In this document: in pieces, positions 5,758 through 12,656 of the stretch
How positions within the stretch are numbered: the first letter of the stretch is position 1
How the letters are laid out: every line of letters starts with the position of its first letter
From: a virus
Direction: 5' to 3' (one strand)
IMG/VR virus record: IMGVR_UViG_3300021519_000088
Location: 1-21,022 of that record
DNA: 21,022 bases
Translations under genes and position numbers: made by a program
The notes under the pieces: model-generated
Seen by the model: the letters and a program-made list of their open reading frames with translations, nothing else
The model's database searches: none
What the model was told of the DNA's origin: nothing

Positions 5758-7440
5758 CTAATTCACTACGACTTTGTACTTACCAACCACTATGGGCGTT
5801 TTTGGAGCAGCGTCTGGTGTGCTAATCCTATTAAGCTTCAAGCCTTTTTCCAGTTGAGTGCGCCTTTCCTCGGATAGGTCCGTAGGAGCAAACGCACGAA
5901 TACTGTCGAAGTAGGCTTCTCTGTTTTGTTCGGCAACGGTGCCTTGACGAACAATGCTATCGCGAAACATTTTAAAAATTTCTTGCGTACTGCCAGTCAC
6001 TGGGACGCCTGTGACATACGTAACCAATTGGGCCACATCGCCCTTGGCTGATGCTTGGTTCAATTTTTGTTCAAGCTCAAGACCAACATTACCAGTAGGA
6101 GACACCAACCGAGCGAGTCCAAGCGCCAACTCCGTCTGCAACACCAATGGAATTTTGTACTCGCCGGTCTTGGGGTCTTGATTCTGGCTAAAAATAGCCA
6201 ACAAGTGTTTCGCTTGATTGACTTTTTGGTCTTCAAGGCCCATGCCTCCGCTTCTTGACGAAAGCGTCCGTTGCAATATTGCCTGATACTGCTTCTCAAA
6301 CCCTTCTTGAGCCTTTGTCGAGTTTGGGTCGTATTCGGCAGCGGCCACTCGCGGACGTTCATAGACACGCGCGCCAGTTTTCATCTCCTGCGCCGTCATT
6401 GGACGTCGCACAGGTTTGCCGTCAGGTCCAGGGACAGTCACCATAGGCGGTACAACTGGTGCCCGCTTATACTCCTCAATAGACATAGGAGTACCGCCCG
6501 CTGCCACTGTATCGGTTACGTACTTTTGATATTGAGCAAGACTAACATCGCCAATGGTCGTCTTCGCGTTAGATGGTGTCACGCCAATGACTTGTCCGCC
6601 CAGCATTGTCGTTGTGCCAGGAGCAAGGCTCACAGCCTTCTCGCTGCCCTTCCGCATCAAGCCGATGAGCAACTGCTCTTGACCTTGGCGACCTTGGTCT
6701 TGACCACTGGCAATCAACGCATCCAAGTCTGATTGCTTGTAGATGCCATTAGCAACAAGAGACGAACCAACCCCATTGACTGCATCAGCCCATGACGTTT
6801 GCGACCCATCAGCCTTCGGCGCACGGAACATCGCCAGCGCATGATTTGCGGCTTGCGCCACGGTGTCATTGCGTTTTTGCACAAAATCGGCAATGTCTTG
6901 GTTCTGCTTGCCAACGTTCACCATCAGTTTGTCAGCGTATGCGCCATACCCCGCCGCATTCAATGCTTGTCGCGTCTTGGCTGGGTTGAACGTCTTCTGC
7001 CCAAAGTCACCTTGGTCAAACAGGTTTGAGTAGTCAGGCGACGGTGGACCTTCATACCGAGACGTGCCAGTCGCAGGGTCGCGCTGATAGTTAGGATCTG
7101 GGCTTTGATCCAAGGACGCCAGGAACCTAACAGCCTCTTTGCCCTTGGCCTGTTCAGCCCGTTCAGTCGCCTTATCAGCAAACTCCAACCGCGCTTGCGC
7201 TTGCTGCTCGTTCTTGAACGCTTGGTCCTTACCGGCTTGAATCTGAGCAGGAATGCCGCTCACAATCTTGCCCACGTTCTCAATCGCCCCGCCGTAGGCT
7301 TGCCCACGAATCTCAGCGGCTCGCGCCTGGGCACTGGCCGTATCGACCAGCGCCTTGGCCTTGGCGTCTTCGCCACGGCTCAAGAGGTCGGCAATGGTGC
7401 TGACGTACGGGTTCCGATAGGCCTGGAAGTCAAACGCCAT
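5758..7440 (-). CDS. Internal virion/ejection-type protein, 560 aa
   Basis: A 560-aa mostly helical protein starting MAFDFQAYRNPYVSTIADLL. Residues 15-105 are Ala/Gln/Lys-rich helix (AKALVDTASAQARAAEIRGQ; KATERAEQAKGKEAV), probably coiled coil. A looser middle region contains SPDPNYQRDPATGTSRYEG and many Gln/Ala helices. The C-terminal third has a helical block (residues about 385-480, including LLAIFSQNQDPKTGEYKIPL and LGLARLVSPTG) and ends in a short beta strand, TPIVVGKYKVVVN. It has no signal peptide or catalytic motif. Position, length (P22 gp16 is about 609 aa) and the TAATG link at 7440 to the 413-aa gene suggest it is one of the proteins injected with the DNA. I base this on context and composition, not on detectable sequence identity. 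Confidence 0.6.
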   Translation of the reverse strand: MAFDFQAYRNPYVSTIADLLSRGEDAKAKALVDTASAQARAAEIRGQAYGGAIENVGKIVSGIPAQIQAGKDQAFKNEQQAQARLEFADKATERAEQAKGKEAVRFLASLDQSPDPNYQRDPATGTSRYEGPPSPDYSNLFDQGDFGQKTFNPAKTRQALNAAGYGAYADKLMVNVGKQNQDIADFVQKRNDTVAQAANHALAMFRAPKADGSQTSWADAVNGVGSSLVANGIYKQSDLDALIASGQDQGRQGQEQLLIGLMRKGSEKAVSLAPGTTTMLGGQVIGVTPSNAKTTIGDVSLAQYQKYVTDTVAAGGTPMSIEEYKRAPVVPPMVTVPGPDGKPVRRPMTAQEMKTGARVYERPRVAAAEYDPNSTKAQEGFEKQYQAILQRTLSSRSGGMGLEDQKVNQAKHLLAIFSQNQDPKTGEYKIPLVLQTELALGLARLVSPTGNVGLELEQKLNQASAKGDVAQLVTYVTGVPVTGSTQEIFKMFRDSIVRQGTVAEQNREAYFDSIRAFAPTDLSEERRTQLEKGLKLNRISTPDAAPKTPIVVGKYKVVVN

Positions 7441-8681
7441 TAGGCACCCGCCGCGTATTGAATGTCGCTCATGCGGTCGCGCTCGTACTGCCGCTGGTTG
7501 TTAATCTTGGTCTGATACGCCGCCATCGCATCATCGTACGCTTTTTGCGTCTGGTTGTAGGCGTTCGTTTGCTGGTTCTGGTACAAGTTGCTGTTGGTGT
7601 TAAACGCGCCAGACTTCCGCGCTTCGGTGTCTTGGTTGTAGGTATTCCCGGCTAGCGCATTGGTCGAGTACTGCTGGAACGCGTTCGCGGCGTTGGTGTT
7701 GTACGTGTTCAGGTTCCGGTTATAAACGTTGCCGTACTCTTGAGACGCCGCTTGCTGGCCGTAGTCCAGCAGTCCCTTCATGTTGCCGCCCGTGTTCGTC
7801 ACGCCACGCGCTGCCCCAGAGTTTTCCAATGCCCGCTGCCCTTCGGCCAAACGGAACTGGTAGCCGGGGTCTTGCCCCATCTCTGCCGCCGTCGGTGCCG
7901 CAAACGGTGCAGGAGCCGCATACTGCGGAGCTTGATAGGCGGCACCGGGCGTGTAGGTGCCGGGGTTCGCAATCGGCCCCTGCTGGCCCATCATGTCGCC
8001 CAATGTGGGAGCGGGCGGCATCTCACCGGGCTTTTGGTTCTGCAAACCATTTGGGCCAAGTCCAAAGGACGCCAGACGTGCTGACCGCTGGGCGGGGGTT
8101 TCGGTCAACGCCGACGCGGTTGCTGTCGTGGTTGACCCGCCGCCACTGTCAGGATGTTCGTCCCATTGGATGTATGGATTGCTATCGGTAGACCCAATAG
8201 CCTTTGTCAAAAAGTTCCCGTTGTACGCGAGTTGGTTCAGTTTCGAGCCAGTGCGCGTCACCCCCGTGGCAAATCCACCGTTCTTGTTGTTGGCGTCAAG
8301 GAATTGTTGAAGTCCAGCGGGTGTCTTTGCGCCAGTCCATGCCAGCCATGCGGCCTTCAGTTTGACAGGGTCGTAGCCCGCGCCGGTCTGCGTTGTGTTT
8401 GTCGTATTTGCGGCTGCGGCTTTTTCTTCGTCTGTGTACTTGTCCGTCTCAGCCTTCGCCATCGACTCAAACATCTGCTTTGTGATGACGATGTCTTTGC
8501 CACGCATGTGCTGCAAAACTTCTTCATCTGACACGGGCCGAGTAATGCCAAATTCCTTATACCAACCACGGACAATCGCCATGTTGGCTTTTCTTTTTGA
8601 GTCGTAGTCCGACTGCGTCGTTGCGTTGGCGTTTGCCTCAGCCGTTGCGGCTGTTATTTCGTCATCCGTAAGTGGCGGCAT
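7440..8681 (-). CDS. Phage DNA-transfer/ejection-type protein with Asn/Gln/Tyr-rich C-terminus
   Basis: A 413-aa protein. The N-terminal half contains helices and a small domain (residues 100-180, including YDPVKLKAAWLAWTGAKTPA). A Pro/Ala/Tyr-rich linker runs from about 220 to 265. Residues 271-322 carry a motif I recognise from many podovirus-like genomes: DPGYQFRLAEGQRALENSGA, then ARG, then YGQQAASQEYGNVYNR. Such proteins are commonly annotated as DNA transfer or internal virion proteins. Residues 316-400 are strikingly rich in Asn, Gln and Tyr (LNTYNTNAANAFQQYSTN; LYQNQQTNAYNQTQKAYDD). It shares TAATG junctions with the genes before and after it. In gene order it matches P22 gp20 (about 471 aa). 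Ejection function is inferred from family context. Confidence 0.7.
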   Translation of the reverse strand: MPPLTDDEITAATAEANANATTQSDYDSKRKANMAIVRGWYKEFGITRPVSDEEVLQHMRGKDIVITKQMFESMAKAETDKYTDEEKAAAANTTNTTQTGAGYDPVKLKAAWLAWTGAKTPAGLQQFLDANNKNGGFATGVTRTGSKLNQLAYNGNFLTKAIGSTDSNPYIQWDEHPDSGGGSTTTATASALTETPAQRSARLASFGLGPNGLQNQKPGEMPPAPTLGDMMGQQGPIANPGTYTPGAAYQAPQYAAPAPFAAPTAAEMGQDPGYQFRLAEGQRALENSGAARGVTNTGGNMKGLLDYGQQAASQEYGNVYNRNLNTYNTNAANAFQQYSTNALAGNTYNQDTEARKSGAFNTNSNLYQNQQTNAYNQTQKAYDDAMAAYQTKINNQRQYERDRMSDIQYAAGA

Positions 8682-9211
8682 TACACGTACCTCGGTTGTC
8701 CGGTCAGGGGATCAATGCTGTCATCGACGGGCGTGGTGTATTGCTGGTCTTCCGGCACAATCAGTGCCGCTTGACGCAACGCATCCGGCTCAACAAACGT
8801 ATCGAGTGCCTCTTGCGGCTGACCGTAGCCCATCATGTCGCGCAAGTAGTTCATCTGGTTGGTGTGCTGCCCACGAACCTTGCTCGCCGTGCGACCACCG
8901 GACACGTACTCTGCCCGTTGATTAGCCGCAGTATCGCCAGACATGCCGTAGGCGTTTCTCAACCCAGCCACATCAGCTTTGTGCTGACCTTGCGATGCTG
9001 CGTTCGCTCGCACTTGATCAAGAAACGACTGGTGCTGCGTGAAACCCAGCGACCGCTTGGCAGCGTCGTCTTGCAACTTTGCGGACGCATTGGCCGCGTC
9101 AGTCGTGAGTTTTGCGGCACGAGATGCCGCGCTTGACTGCATCTTTGCACTAGCAATACCGCCTATTGCGGTAACTCCGGCAGCGATAACTGGTACGGCA
9201 GCTACTGGCAC
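8681..9211 (-). CDS. Small ejection-type virion protein with hydrophobic N-terminus
   Basis: A 176-aa protein with a GTG start at 9211, supported by AGAGGTG about seven bases upstream. Residues 1-20 are hydrophobic (VPVAAVPVIAAGVTAIGGIA), followed by an Ala/Ser/Lys-rich helix (residues 22-60), then a mixed region with DVAGLRNAYGMSGDTAANQR and an acidic C-terminus ending SIDPLTGQPRYV. The hydrophobic start plus Ala-rich helix is typical of small proteins injected with the DNA, and in gene order it matches P22 gp7 (about 229 aa). It overlaps the GNAT-like gene by 10 bp and is joined to the 413-aa gene by TAATG. No catalytic residues are apparent. The N-terminus is not followed by a clear signal-peptidase site, so I do not call it secreted. 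Confidence 0.62.
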   Translation of the reverse strand: MPVAAVPVIAAGVTAIGGIASAKMQSSAASRAAKLTTDAANASAKLQDDAAKRSLGFTQHQSFLDQVRANAASQGQHKADVAGLRNAYGMSGDTAANQRAEYVSGGRTASKVRGQHTNQMNYLRDMMGYGQPQEALDTFVEPDALRQAALIVPEDQQYTTPVDDSIDPLTGQPRYV

Positions 9212-9987
9212 GACAGCACCTCTACATGTGACTGCATAATCTCAATCCTTAACTGATCAAAACTGACCACAAGCGGGCACTCGTTTTCAACAACCAGTGT
9301 TTCGTATCCCGTCCACAAGGCCCAGCGGTTGTAACACGTCACCGCTTTCCAGACGAGTCCGGCTTGGAGCATCCCAATCGTCGCGCCGACCATCGCGTCA
9401 TGGACCGCATCGTCAGGATGTGCGGCGTGTTGTTCGTCTGTTCGAATCGTGTCGAGCATGGCATGGAACCATGCGCCCATCCGCTTGGACTCACGAGACA
9501 GCAACGCCCACTTTTCAACAGGCAGACTATAGAACGCGGTCAGTTTCTGTGACTCGGCATTCCACGCAGACAGGCTTTCAAACTGCGGCGTAAACCCAGC
9601 TAGTCGTGCCAACCCTTTTGCCGCAAGGTTATCGACAGGCACCTTCGTCAGCACTTCGACGCACGGCGTAGACGTAAACATGTACGCCATCGCATCACGC
9701 ATCGCGTGAATAGCCGCTTGTTTAGGCCGAGACGGGTCAAACAACGAATGCACCTCGTACCGACCAGCGCCGTGGTTCACGCAGATAAACCCGCCAGCCT
9801 CGCCTAGCAGCGCAATATTAGATGGTTCAGTCACAATTGCCGTCAAGTCGGCGACACCATCTCCACCAATCCACGGACGTACCGAAGGATGGTTCGCAAT
9901 AACGTTGAATGCCGTGGCGTCAACCGTACGACGCACCAGCCGTGTTGCGCGAAACGGAGGGATGACGTTCAAATCAGTTGCTCGCAC
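9202..9987 (-). CDS. GNAT-like protein encoded in the virion gene block
   Basis: A 261-aa protein with a GTG start at 9987, inside the preceding gene; a TTG at 9972 that overlaps that gene's stop is an alternative. Residues 20-135 resemble a GNAT N-acetyltransferase: GGFICVNHGAGRYEVHSLF as the central strands, an helix from about 90 to 103 (AAIHAMRDAMAYMF), strand CVEVLTKVP, and the NLAAKGLARLAGF block typical of motif B. The usual acyl-CoA pyrophosphate loop (R/Q-x-x-G-x-G/A) is not intact; the corresponding stretch is RPKQAA. Residues 170-261 form an extra domain with HPDDAVHDAMVGATIGMLQAG and CYNRWALWTGYE. GNAT-like proteins are known in tail-side gene blocks of short-tailed phages. It may be an enzyme acting on host or virion proteins, or a non-catalytic structural relative. 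Confidence 0.65.
   Translation of the reverse strand: MRATDLNVIPPFRATRLVRRTVDATAFNVIANHPSVRPWIGGDGVADLTAIVTEPSNIALLGEAGGFICVNHGAGRYEVHSLFDPSRPKQAAIHAMRDAMAYMFTSTPCVEVLTKVPVDNLAAKGLARLAGFTPQFESLSAWNAESQKLTAFYSLPVEKWALLSRESKRMGAWFHAMLDTIRTDEQHAAHPDDAVHDAMVGATIGMLQAGLVWKAVTCYNRWALWTGYETLVVENECPLVVSFDQLRIEIMQSHVEVLSCQ
9217..9223 (-). promoter_or_regulatory. Shine-Dalgarno deciding a GTG start
   Basis: On the minus strand AGAGGTG lies just upstream of the GTG at 9211, with good spacing (about 5-7 bases). It lies inside the 3' end of the GNAT-like gene and supports translation of the 176-aa protein from GTG rather than from an internal ATG more than 20 codons further on. Confidence 0.6.
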
Positions 9988-10451
9988 ACCACGTCCAATC
10001 GATACTGCATCGGAGTTACCCCCACGCTGGCATACGTCGTCGCATAGGTGATGGTCGTCGCATCACCCACGCTGATGAGAGCGGACAACGAGGTCGTGGT
10101 CGCCAACGTGTTGCCCGTCATCGCCGTGCTACTCAGCGTACACGCGACACCCGATGTCCAGCCGAACGTCACAATCAGCGACGAACTGGTCGTCGCCACG
10201 CGCGTCACTTGCGTCGTCATCGACACGCGATAGACACCCGGCAGCACCGACAGGATCGGCAGTGCCGTCGTCGTAATCGACGCGGCTTGCGTCGTTAAAC
10301 TGACTGACGACACGGTTTGTGGTCCGGCATTGATGCGGTCAATGAGCGACAGCAACCAGTAGCGCATGGCTTGCGTCACGCGTCCAGTGATGCTGTTGTT
10401 CAGCACCGGTGTCTCGACAATGACACCGGGCACCGGAGCCAAATTCAACAT
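9969..10451 (-). CDS. Tail-side structural protein, 160 aa
   Basis: A 160-aa protein. Residues 1-45 contain an extended arm (MLNLAPVPGVIVETPVLNNS) and a helix (TQAMRYWLLSLIDRINAG). The rest is Thr/Ser/Val-rich and reads as beta strands, including TALPILSVLPGVYRVSMTT and a long run of small polar residues around TAMTGNTLATTTSLS. I recognise similar arm-helix-beta proteins beside tail hub genes of environmental phages, without a formal family name. It follows the gp10-like gene through a TAATG junction, the place held by the tail needle gene (gp26) in P22, but it lacks the long heptad coiled coil of gp26. A tail-closure or fibre-attachment role is possible. Confidence 0.6.
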   Translation of the reverse strand: MLNLAPVPGVIVETPVLNNSITGRVTQAMRYWLLSLIDRINAGPQTVSSVSLTTQAASITTTALPILSVLPGVYRVSMTTQVTRVATTSSSLIVTFGWTSGVACTLSSTAMTGNTLATTTSLSALISVGDATTITYATTYASVGVTPMQYRLDVVCEQLI

Positions 10452-11920
10452 TACGATTGCCCTAGGAAATGACGCCCGTCAATCAGTGCGCCCACAATGC
10501 GCCACGGAATCGGGTCCGTCACCACAATCTCAGGCACCCACATCTGCTGCGAACTTGCCAGGCGTGTCCAATACACATTCTGCGTATACGCGCCTAACGT
10601 GCCAGCCGTGGCCGATAGACTGCCTGTCCACGTCTTCACATCTGCACTCGTCCGCAGCAACACTTGCGGGTTGGACCCTTGGCCGCTGACCGCGCCCAGC
10701 CCCGGTTCCATCAACAGTTGGAATCGCGACACAAACATTCGTTTGGCTTGCGGGTCCACCCAAATGGGCGGGGGAATCCGCAACCGTCGAATGAGGTCGC
10801 CGTTACACTCGCTGGTAAATGTAATGTCCATCTCGCACAACATGCCTGTGCCACGGTTGCCCACCAGATGCTTGCCAAAGGCATAAGCATGGTTGCGCGG
10901 CCCCCAGACGCCATAACTGCCCGTGGCCGTATCCCACACGCCCCGCTCATGCCAGAGTCGCGTGGTCAGGTCATAGACCCACGTCGCGTTGGCCGCAGGA
11001 AATGTCAGGCAGTAGAACGTGTGCCCTTGGTCACTGTACGTCACGGCTTCCGCGTCCGTAATCCCCACCGTCCGCGCATAGCCCGCAATCGCCGTCTCGA
11101 CGGCATACGTGCTGACGCGCTCAGGCACGAGTCCGTTAGCTCCAATGACTTGCCCTGCCCCATTTGAATTCTGCGACAGCCACATCATGCTGCTGCCGAC
11201 TAGCTTTACGCTCGCTGGCGCACAGGTGCCATAGCCAAAGACGCTGCCAGGCACTGGCTGGAACGGGAAAGGCGACGTGCCCGCGTCATACCAGACTTCG
11301 CCGGTCTGCTCGCCAATCAGCCAAATCTGCCGGTTGCTATCGACGGTCATCGACACCCACGGATCCGGCGCGATGCTGCGTTGAGCAAACTGCGTCAAGT
11401 CCCACGTCGCCCCGTCATTCAGATTGCTGATGTAAAACGTCGAGGTTGCGGCATTGAACGCCAAGAAGTAGCCATCAATCATGCCCACGCTGGTGGTGAT
11501 GCCTGCCAGGTTTGCGACCGCTACCAACGTGTTGGTCGCAATGGTCAGCAAATAGCCATTTGTGCCAGACCCGATCAGCAGTTGCCCGCCAGCCGCGCCG
11601 TTGCTGGCAATGCTCGCCATGTTGGGGTCGTTGACGACCGTGCCGCCCGTGACAATGGCCGCGCTATTCGTGGCAAAGACTTGGTAAACACTGGCCCCCA
11701 TCACGGCGTAGCACCGTCCCGCCATCGCAAACAAGGCGCGGCAGTTGATGTCGCTGACCGTGACGTAGTCCTCTTGACCCGGACACGGATATAGCGCGGC
11801 TGGATACGGTGACGCTGGCGACTGAATCGGCTCAGGATACCAATTCATCGTCCGCTCAAGGTCAGCCCACGGACTCTGCGACTCATTCGACCCGTAGACG
11901 AAGCCCGGATACAGCGGCAT
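10451..11920 (-). CDS. P22 gp10-like packaged DNA stabilisation protein (tail hub)
   Basis: A 489-aa protein starting MPLYPGFVYGSNESQSPWAD. I place the start at the ATG at 11920, one base after the stop of the gp4-like gene. A TTG 15 codons upstream also keeps the frame open but lies within that gene and adds residues unlike the family. The beta-propeller-like composition, the N-terminal ADLERTMNWYPEPI segment, repeated strand-turn units (QIWLIGEQTGEVWYDAG; FYCLTFPAANATWVYDL; LWHERGVWD) and the length match the gp10 family (P22 gp10 is 472 aa). In P22, gp10 assembles below the gp4 ring, keeps DNA in the filled head and anchors the tailspikes and needle. Its place directly after the gp4-like gene is the same as in P22. 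Confidence 0.82.
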   Translation of the reverse strand: MPLYPGFVYGSNESQSPWADLERTMNWYPEPIQSPASPYPAALYPCPGQEDYVTVSDINCRALFAMAGRCYAVMGASVYQVFATNSAAIVTGGTVVNDPNMASIASNGAAGGQLLIGSGTNGYLLTIATNTLVAVANLAGITTSVGMIDGYFLAFNAATSTFYISNLNDGATWDLTQFAQRSIAPDPWVSMTVDSNRQIWLIGEQTGEVWYDAGTSPFPFQPVPGSVFGYGTCAPASVKLVGSSMMWLSQNSNGAGQVIGANGLVPERVSTYAVETAIAGYARTVGITDAEAVTYSDQGHTFYCLTFPAANATWVYDLTTRLWHERGVWDTATGSYGVWGPRNHAYAFGKHLVGNRGTGMLCEMDITFTSECNGDLIRRLRIPPPIWVDPQAKRMFVSRFQLLMEPGLGAVSGQGSNPQVLLRTSADVKTWTGSLSATAGTLGAYTQNVYWTRLASSQQMWVPEIVVTDPIPWRIVGALIDGRHFLGQS

Positions 11921-11921
11921 A

Positions 11922-12656
11922 TTAGGTGTCCGAGTAGATGTTGTAGTGTGGCCCTGCGCCGCCAAAGAGCAATCCCGCCACGCCGCTCGACAGGTCGCTC
12001 AACCGCTGGTTGCTGCGTTTGATGTCCGCTTTGCTTTCCATGGCCGCTTGCTGCAAATCGACCGTCAACGGCGCGTCAAATGCCGCCGCAATCTCTTTCG
12101 CCAGCCCCGTTCGCAGGAACCGACGGTAGCCCGGAGGCAGACTGATCGTGTCTGTAATTGCGGCAAACTCCGTCACTGGCACAGGCGTATAGATAACCCC
12201 TTGCAATGTGAGACTGGTCGGCAACGGCCAGAGATACAGCAACCCCAGCCCCGCATTGAACGTGGGGTTGTAATACGCGGCTTGCGGATAGACCGAGGTC
12301 AACCCCTTCTGCGCGATACCCGCATAGGCGTCTTCCGTCAGCGCCGTGCCGAGGTTGTACTCAATCGTCGGCGTCACGCTGGTGTCTTGAAAACCCACGT
12401 TCGTGATGTTCATTGCACTCAGAGGACGCACGCAGTTGATGGTGCCGCCAGACCCGACCGTGTAGTTGGTTGCCCCGCTAATCGTCCAGGTTGTGCGCGC
12501 TTGGCTATAGACGGTCAACCCCTCAGTCGCAAGGCTGTTGATCCAATCGTTCAACCGTGCCAGCGCAAACGCCGCATCACTGGCAGACGCCGTTTCGTTG
12601 ATTTGCAGGATCCGTAAATCCTGCATCGCTGCCGTAATGAGTTGGCTGACCGTCAT
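11922..12656 (-). CDS. P22 gp4-like tail adaptor (head completion protein)
   Basis: A 244-aa protein. The helical N-terminus (QLITAAMQDLRILQINETAS, then ALARLNDWINSLATEGL) and the following beta segment (TTWTISGATNYTVGSGG) are hallmarks of the gp4-like tail accessory factors found in P22-like phages. A second conserved stretch, ITDTISLPPGYRRFLRTGLA, leads into helices near the C-terminus (LQQAAMESKADIKRSNQR). In P22, gp4 forms a ring of 12 copies under the portal and seats gp10. Here the gene lies immediately before the gp10-like gene. At 244 aa it is longer than P22 gp4 (166 aa) and in the range of environmental homologues. An AAGGG lies close to the ATG at 12656. P22 gp4 has been reported to have muralytic activity; nothing here shows that directly. 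Confidence 0.8.
   Translation of the reverse strand: MTVSQLITAAMQDLRILQINETASASDAAFALARLNDWINSLATEGLTVYSQARTTWTISGATNYTVGSGGTINCVRPLSAMNITNVGFQDTSVTPTIEYNLGTALTEDAYAGIAQKGLTSVYPQAAYYNPTFNAGLGLLYLWPLPTSLTLQGVIYTPVPVTEFAAITDTISLPPGYRRFLRTGLAKEIAAAFDAPLTVDLQQAAMESKADIKRSNQRLSDLSSGVAGLLFGGAGPHYNIYSDT

What the first reader, a model, noticed from the sequence alone, without database searches (positions are those of the whole stretch)
9202..9987. GNAT-like protein with a degenerate acyl-CoA loop and extra C-terminal domain among ejection genes
The fold pattern of GNAT acetyltransferases is visible, including the NLAAKGLARLAGF block, but the pyrophosphate-binding loop is RPKQAA instead of R/Q-x-x-G-x-G/A. 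An extra domain of about 90 residues follows (with HPDDAVHDAM). The gene overlaps tail and ejection genes on both sides and takes the place of P22 gp14. Either it modifies host or virion proteins early in infection, or the GNAT fold has been recruited as a virion building block.
Basis: partly seen in the sequence, partly recalled or inferred. Interest (0 to 1): 0.5.

Follow-up and report, generated by a model that had tools for sequence, protein, structure and literature searches.

The report
Disarmed acetyltransferase-fold protein beside ejection genes
A short-tailed phage carries, just before the genes for the proteins it injects into bacteria, a protein shaped like an acetyltransferase but lacking the usual catalytic signatures and carrying an extra domain of unknown fold, which suggests that the enzyme fold has been reused as a virus-assembly helper.

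Summary
The ORF is real and conserved. A predicted model (pLDDT 67) shows a GNAT fold over residues 8-160 (best Z 15.2), followed by a conserved ~100-residue domain with no fold match. The family is tiny: nine IMG/VR contigs, no match in 50,697 phage records. The acyl-CoA loop is degenerate in all seven distinct members, and the usual helix-4 Tyr is missing in all seven. In 69 related contigs that reach this gene slot, 60 hold a GNAT-type protein there (8 window-type, 30 small, 22 with R-x-x-G and Tyr), 9 none. The slot is that of P22 gp14 ('virion stability factor') and T7 gp13 ('probable scaffold'); kinship to P22 gp14 is suggestive only. In three published virion mass-spectrometry studies of other phages, slot counterparts were not reported while ejection proteins were. 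Best reading: a catalytically disarmed GNAT fold acting as a non-packaged assembly factor for the ejection proteins (confidence 0.5).

The parts
9202..9987 (-). slot gene: GNAT-fold protein with C-terminal extension (261 aa from GTG 9987; 256 aa from TTG 9972)
   Evidence: ORF list; junction sequences; relatives
9517..9948 (-). GNAT-fold domain (about residues 9-152 of the 256-aa form)
   Evidence: model; VIA-align Z 15.2 over 151 residues; Foldseek
9712..9729 (-). degenerate acyl-CoA loop RPKQAA
   Evidence: codons listed; family variants
9592..9630 (-). helix-4 block NLAAKGLARLAGF with Ala where the usual Tyr would be (motif recalled)
9205..9507 (-). C-terminal domain: three helices plus four strands, invariant H-P-[DE]-D-x-V-H-D cluster, no fold match
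9969..10451 (-). upstream orphan 160-aa gene, constant border of the slot in related phages
   Evidence: (no hits at E<=1)
8681..9211 (-). downstream 176-aa ejection-type protein with hydrophobic N terminus
   Evidence: similarity to the first late gene of L084 E 7e-9 and to Pan3_10 E 0.001, single comparisons; best PHROG match E 0.0056, function unknown
7440..8681 (-). 413-aa protein with match to the P22 gp7 family over residues 269-389
   Evidence: phrog_598 E 5.4e-4; P22 gp7 itself is phrog_598
10451..11965 (-). tail hub, P22 gp10 type (head closure Hc3), used as anchor for the slot survey
   Evidence: phrog_578 E 7e-84

Best explanation
The gene encodes a GNAT-fold pseudoenzyme that sits in the P22 gp14 / T7 gp13 slot and works as an assembly factor made together with the ejection proteins: it probably holds or delivers the adjacent ejection proteins (176-aa and 413-aa products) during head assembly and is not kept in the finished virion. 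Shown here: the fold (by prediction), the slot, the loss of catalytic signatures in the family, purifying selection, and exchange with other GNAT-type proteins in the same slot. Inferred: binding to ejection proteins, the transient role, absence of catalysis, and that the C-terminal domain is the partner-binding part.
For: Fold; one BFVD match is an 'Internal virion protein A' of a podovirus (rank 27, E 5.3e-4). Slot: of 80 tail-hub-anchored loci, 75 hold the 160-aa neighbour, 69 of those reach the slot, and 60 carry a GNAT-type gene there (8 window-type, 30 small, 22 with R-x-x-G and Tyr), 9 none (three duplicate loci removed by hand). Of 35 slot proteins scanned (17 small, 12 of the third class, 6 window-type), 29 match Pfam Acetyltransf_1 at E<=0.01. 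Catalytic loss: the Tyr column is Y in 12 of 12 of the third class but C or L in 17 of 17 small ones and never Y in 6 of 6 window-type; the seventh member L104 also lacks it. P22 gp14 is labelled 'virion stability factor', T7 gp13 'probable scaffold protein'. Virion mass spectrometry of phiPsa17 lists gp14, gp15, gp16 but not the gp13 homologue (PMC4517105, passages); SH1, SH3, SH4 list internal proteins B, C, D but not A (PMC4925675, section read); the YA3 text accounts for 13 proteins without naming the ORF13 acetyltransferase (PMC7326022, section and passages).
Against: No direct evidence of binding to ejection proteins. The proteome evidence comes from other phages whose slot proteins are not shown to be homologous to this one beyond fold class. 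22 of 60 slot proteins keep R-x-x-G and Tyr, so catalysis may matter in some relatives. Nine loci have no slot gene, so the role is dispensable or done otherwise there. GNATs can act without the Tyr or with altered loops (recalled).
Confidence: 0.5

Rival explanations
1. It is a working but atypical acyltransferase that modifies an ejection protein or a host protein; the loop has diverged but still binds acyl-CoA, with the base and acid supplied by other residues.
For: GNAT fold with best matches to enzymes such as PseH and SpeG; a basic residue P-x-R is invariant at the loop; related phages carry a GNAT with R-x-x-G and Tyr in the same slot; the strict R/Q-x-x-G-x-G/A pattern is absent from the loop even in that class, so loop deviation alone does not show inactivity.
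Against: Gly at loop position 4 and the helix-4 Tyr are both lost in 7 of 7 members; loop residues change freely among relatives (PK, SG, TR, PR, PS).
Confidence: 0.22
2. It is a packaged virion component, with the C-terminal domain as a structural module of the portal or core.
For: Location in the structural operon, strong conservation of the C-terminal domain, 'internal virion protein' label of the T7 and epsilon15 slot proteins.
Against: Slot counterparts are not listed in three mass-spectrometry virion studies where neighbours were found; the passages seen of a 2024 T7 cryo-EM paper that models gp14, gp6.7 and gp7.3 do not name gp13, with 0 occurrences in its main text (PMC11784390). None of these is this phage.
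Confidence: 0.13
3. It is a cargo gene for host takeover or counter-defence that merely lodges in a tolerant late-gene slot.
For: The slot swaps among GNAT classes between phages with 86-96% identical tail hubs and is empty in 9 of 69; some class-G loci carry a further gene there; SP6 and BPP-1 hold GNAT genes at other places.
Against: The swapped genes are nearly always GNAT-type rather than random cargo (60 of 69); gene overlaps on both sides suggest translational coupling with ejection genes.
Confidence: 0.15

Closest known systems
P22 gp14 family (PF11039 DUF2824, phrog_651)
   Same: Same gene slot between tail genes and ejection genes; similar size of the GNAT domain; end-to-end alignment with NHP near the N terminus; weak profile hits in several members.
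   Different: Statistics are only suggestive (phrog_651 E 0.03-0.16; hhalign P 0.023 global, 0.31 default local); P22 gp14 has no C-terminal extension; its fold was not determined here.
PAE2_12 of Pseudomonas phage PAE2
   Same: Lies among the genes between the tail hub and large late genes; best sequence match to the family's GNAT domain (z 10.2 and 7.2 with two members, hhalign P 0.0012); weak GNAT Pfam hit.
   Different: 135 aa, no C-terminal domain; z only 2.0 with the window protein itself.
T7 gp13 / epsilon15 gp13 (PF11090, phrog_308)
   Same: Same slot upstream of ejection genes; the epsilon15 record notes an HHpred match to a GNAT.
   Different: No profile or pairwise match to the window family; no C-terminal domain.
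phrog_1249 phage GNATs (class G, Pam1_11, Pan3_09)
   Same: GNAT; Pan3_09 sits between the needle gene and a gp7-family gene, the P22 gp14 slot.
   Different: Class G keeps Tyr and R-x-x-G; no C-terminal domain; the window protein scores only E 0.02.
SpeG / PseH / RimI-type GNAT enzymes
   Same: Fold (Z 14-15 over 135-151 residues).
   Different: Intact acyl-CoA loop and catalytic residues in the enzymes (recalled); 9-19% identity.

Membership tests
GNAT superfamily | GNAT core fold | tested here: met
   Model pLDDT 67, pTM 0.54 with GNAT strand/helix order; Z 15.2 and 253 PDB chains at E<=0.001
GNAT superfamily | acyl-CoA loop R/Q-x-x-G-x-G/A | tested here: not met
   Position 4 is Q or R in all 7 members; 0 of 6 in the loop by pattern (one off-site match in L063)
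GNAT superfamily | Tyr general acid in helix 4 (common, recalled) | tested here: not met
   Absent in 7 of 7
GNAT superfamily | Pfam GNAT model above curated cut-off | tested here: not met
   PF13302 14.8 bits against 25.4; L043 19.3 bits
GNAT superfamily | acyl-CoA binding and acyl transfer | not testable with these tools
   needs biochemistry
P22 gp14 family (DUF2824 / phrog_651) | gene slot between tail genes and ejection genes | tested here: met
   a 160-aa orphan gene stands where P22 has its needle gene
P22 gp14 family (DUF2824 / phrog_651) | profile match | tested here: inconclusive
   phrog_651 E 0.076, 0.14, 0.16, best 0.031, 5 of 35 slot proteins at E<=0.5; PF11039 not listed at E<=1
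P22 gp14 family (DUF2824 / phrog_651) | single ~150-aa domain | tested here: not met
   extra 101-residue domain
T7 gp13 family (PF11090 / phrog_308) | profile match | tested here: not met
   not listed at E<=1; pairwise z -0.8 to 2.2
T7 gp13 family (PF11090 / phrog_308) | role in assembly of the ejection core | not testable with these tools
   no mutant or proteome for this phage

The most novel reading that the evidence does not exclude
The unexplained slot before the ejection genes of podophages (P22 gene 14, T7 gene 13, epsilon15 gene 13 and the genes seen here) is generally filled by GNAT folds, repeatedly stripped of catalysis and swapped for one another, that act as transient assembly factors for the ejection proteins; the window family has added its own client- or portal-binding domain.
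Probability: 0.3. Interest if true: 0.65.

Novelty: new variant of a known kind. Interest (0 to 1): 0.45.

Why it matters
P22 gene 14 and T7 gene 13 are old genes with vague labels. A shared GNAT fold with a lost active site would give them a common, testable job in loading the proteins that build the DNA-injection channel, and would add a viral case of an enzyme fold turned assembly factor.

Tried and rejected
Direct homologue searches: tblastn of the whole protein (E<=0.01), of its C-terminal part (E<=10) and of L043 (E<=5) found nothing in 50,697 phage records; a genome-contig scan with the C-terminal alignment matched 142 stretches by pattern, none confirmed. A profile search of solved-structure sequences found nothing at E<=10. 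NCBIfam gave nothing for the window protein.

Kinship tests: profile comparison in default local mode did not link the family to P22 gp14, T7 gp13, epsilon15 gp13 or the small slot class; shuffled-sequence z-scores for P22 gp14 relatives were 1.0-3.7 over 12 comparisons while six negative controls reached 2.4; hmmsearch over a local set of ORFs gave no significant P22 link either way (S9-5 at E 3.8 only). So homology to P22 gp14 is not claimed as shown.

C-terminal domain: best VIA Z 5.0 over 63 residues and no viral match at E<=0.001; that shows no relative at hand, not a new fold. Considered and dropped: calling it a metal site from the invariant His/Asp cluster, for lack of any structural match.

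Literature: searches listed no paper whose title, abstract or opened passages discuss P22 gp14 as a GNAT or a GNAT pseudoenzyme in ejection assembly; only open-licence PMC papers are held and the limit of 15 opened papers was reached, so this is weak evidence of absence. The YA3 paper and the epsilon15 record already call their slot proteins acetyltransferase or GNAT-like. For phage G11 only SDS-PAGE was used, and its GNAT ORF 39 was not assigned to a band (PMC10142737, passages).

Rows dropped before counts: three duplicate loci (L020, L024, L025 repeat L003, L001, L002) and six loci cut before the slot; slot classes were first assigned by N-terminal string patterns chosen by eye, then a set of 35 was checked with Pfam. 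In one search identical sequences and those with stops were dropped (36 P22 gp14-type and 62 epsilon15-type kept). The window-type rows are misplaced by a column or so at helix 4 in the mixed alignment; the absence of Tyr was therefore read from the sequences themselves.

Full report
What is there. The window is a 21,022-base IMG/VR virus record with a P22-type late operon on the minus strand: portal (P22_portal 4e-118), adaptor, tail hub, then a 160-aa orphan gene, the reported gene, and large ejection-type genes. The reported ORF is at 9202-9987. It overlaps its neighbours by 19 or 4 bases upstream, depending on the start codon, and by 10 bases downstream.

Fold. Sequence libraries see only a trace of GNAT (Pfam PF13302 E 0.049; phrog_1249 E 0.02). 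The predicted model from six aligned members has mean pLDDT 67 and pTM 0.54 and shows the GNAT order of strands and helices followed by a helical and beta C-terminal part. Foldseek finds 253 PDB chains at E<=0.001, led by spermidine acetyltransferases, and VIA-align gives Z 15.2, rmsd 3.2, over 151 residues to PseH. Among viral models many of the named matches are acetyltransferases and rank 27 is an 'Internal virion protein A'. The fold is therefore well supported although it rests on a model.

Family. Scans of 2.9 million viral contigs found relatives in nine contigs; with the window they make seven distinct proteins, 56-95% identical to it. None was found in genome contigs by the C-terminal alignment or in the phage records. 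Both domains are under purifying selection, with dN/dS 0.06-0.27 where it could be computed. The loop reads RPKQAA in the window, RSGQAA in the closest relatives and TRQSS, PRQSA, PSQSA or KPRRLA in the others: the R is kept, the position-4 Gly is never there. The helix-4 block N-x-x-A-x-x-L-x-x-x-A-G-F (A-to-T at its fourth position in L104) has Ala or Thr where GNATs usually have Tyr (motif recalled).

Slot. Using the tail hub as an anchor, 80 loci were fetched. Seventy-five hold the 160-aa neighbour; 69 reach the slot behind it. The slot holds a window-type protein in 8, a small GNAT-type protein of 117-130 aa in 30, a mostly 145-151-aa GNAT with R-x-x-G and Tyr in 22, and no such gene in 9. 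Of 35 slot proteins tested, 29 match Acetyltransf_1 at E<=0.01, and the six Pfam families reported at that level are all acetyltransferase families (FR47 by recall). The Tyr column is Tyr in 12 of 12 of the third class, Cys or Leu in 17 of 17 small ones, never Tyr in 6 of 6 window-type. Phages with tail hubs 86-96% identical to the window's differ in slot class, so the GNAT type is exchanged while the slot stays. In cultured phages, Pan3_09 (phrog_1249 E 8e-11) lies between a needle gene and a gene of the P22 gp7 family (phrog_598 E 7e-26), and Pam1_11 is in the same stretch.

What it corresponds to. In P22 the gene before gp7 is gp14, labelled head morphogenesis or virion stability factor; in T7 the gene before the ejection genes is gp13, Pfam 'probable scaffold protein'; in epsilon15 it is gp13, whose record notes an HHpred match to a GNAT. 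The window family aligns end to end with P22 gp14 and gets recurrent weak phrog_651 hits (E 0.03-0.16), but the statistics are borderline or negative. PAE2_12 is a better match for two members (z 10.2, 7.2). Kinship with P22 gp14 is thus likely but not shown.

How it probably works. Passages and sections that I read report virion mass spectrometry for phiPsa17 (PMC4517105), SH1, SH3 and SH4 (PMC4925675) and YA3 (PMC7326022): in each, ejection-type proteins are listed and the slot protein is not. A small protein made with the ejection proteins but not found in the particle is what an assembly factor would look like. With its active-site marks gone, I take the GNAT domain as a binding platform and the added domain as an extra contact, possibly for the 176-aa product. 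That last step is inference.

Limits. The model has moderate confidence, the family is shallow, the phage has no known host or proteome, and no activity or binding has been tested.

Noticed in passing
window 9969-10451: The 160-aa orphan gene is 51-98% identical to its homologues in related contigs and borders the slot in 75 of 80 tail-hub-anchored loci, yet has no Pfam or PHROG match at E<=1.
   Followed up: partly
L039 9393-10001; L046 5463-6257: In some class-G loci a second enzyme-like gene follows the GNAT; by eye it has an HxD...H pattern as in 2-oxoglutarate/iron oxygenases (recalled, untested).
   Followed up: no
L003 2632-3402 and L004 5174-5944: The last ~30 codons of the slot gene diverge from the closest relatives and end at an earlier stop, as if a recombination joint lay inside the C-terminal domain.
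   Followed up: no
window 9205-9507: Invariant H-P-[DE]-D-x-V-H-D cluster in the orphan C-terminal domain in 7 of 7 members; might be a metal site.
   Followed up: no
record OR850267.1: A 1.9-kb 'Staphylococcus phage' record matches P22 gp14 at 88% over 42 residues; probably contamination.
   Followed up: no
L270 (MW722521.1) 301-1047: Both the gp14-type gene and the following gp7-position gene are labelled DUF2824, so one label is probably propagated wrongly.
   Followed up: no
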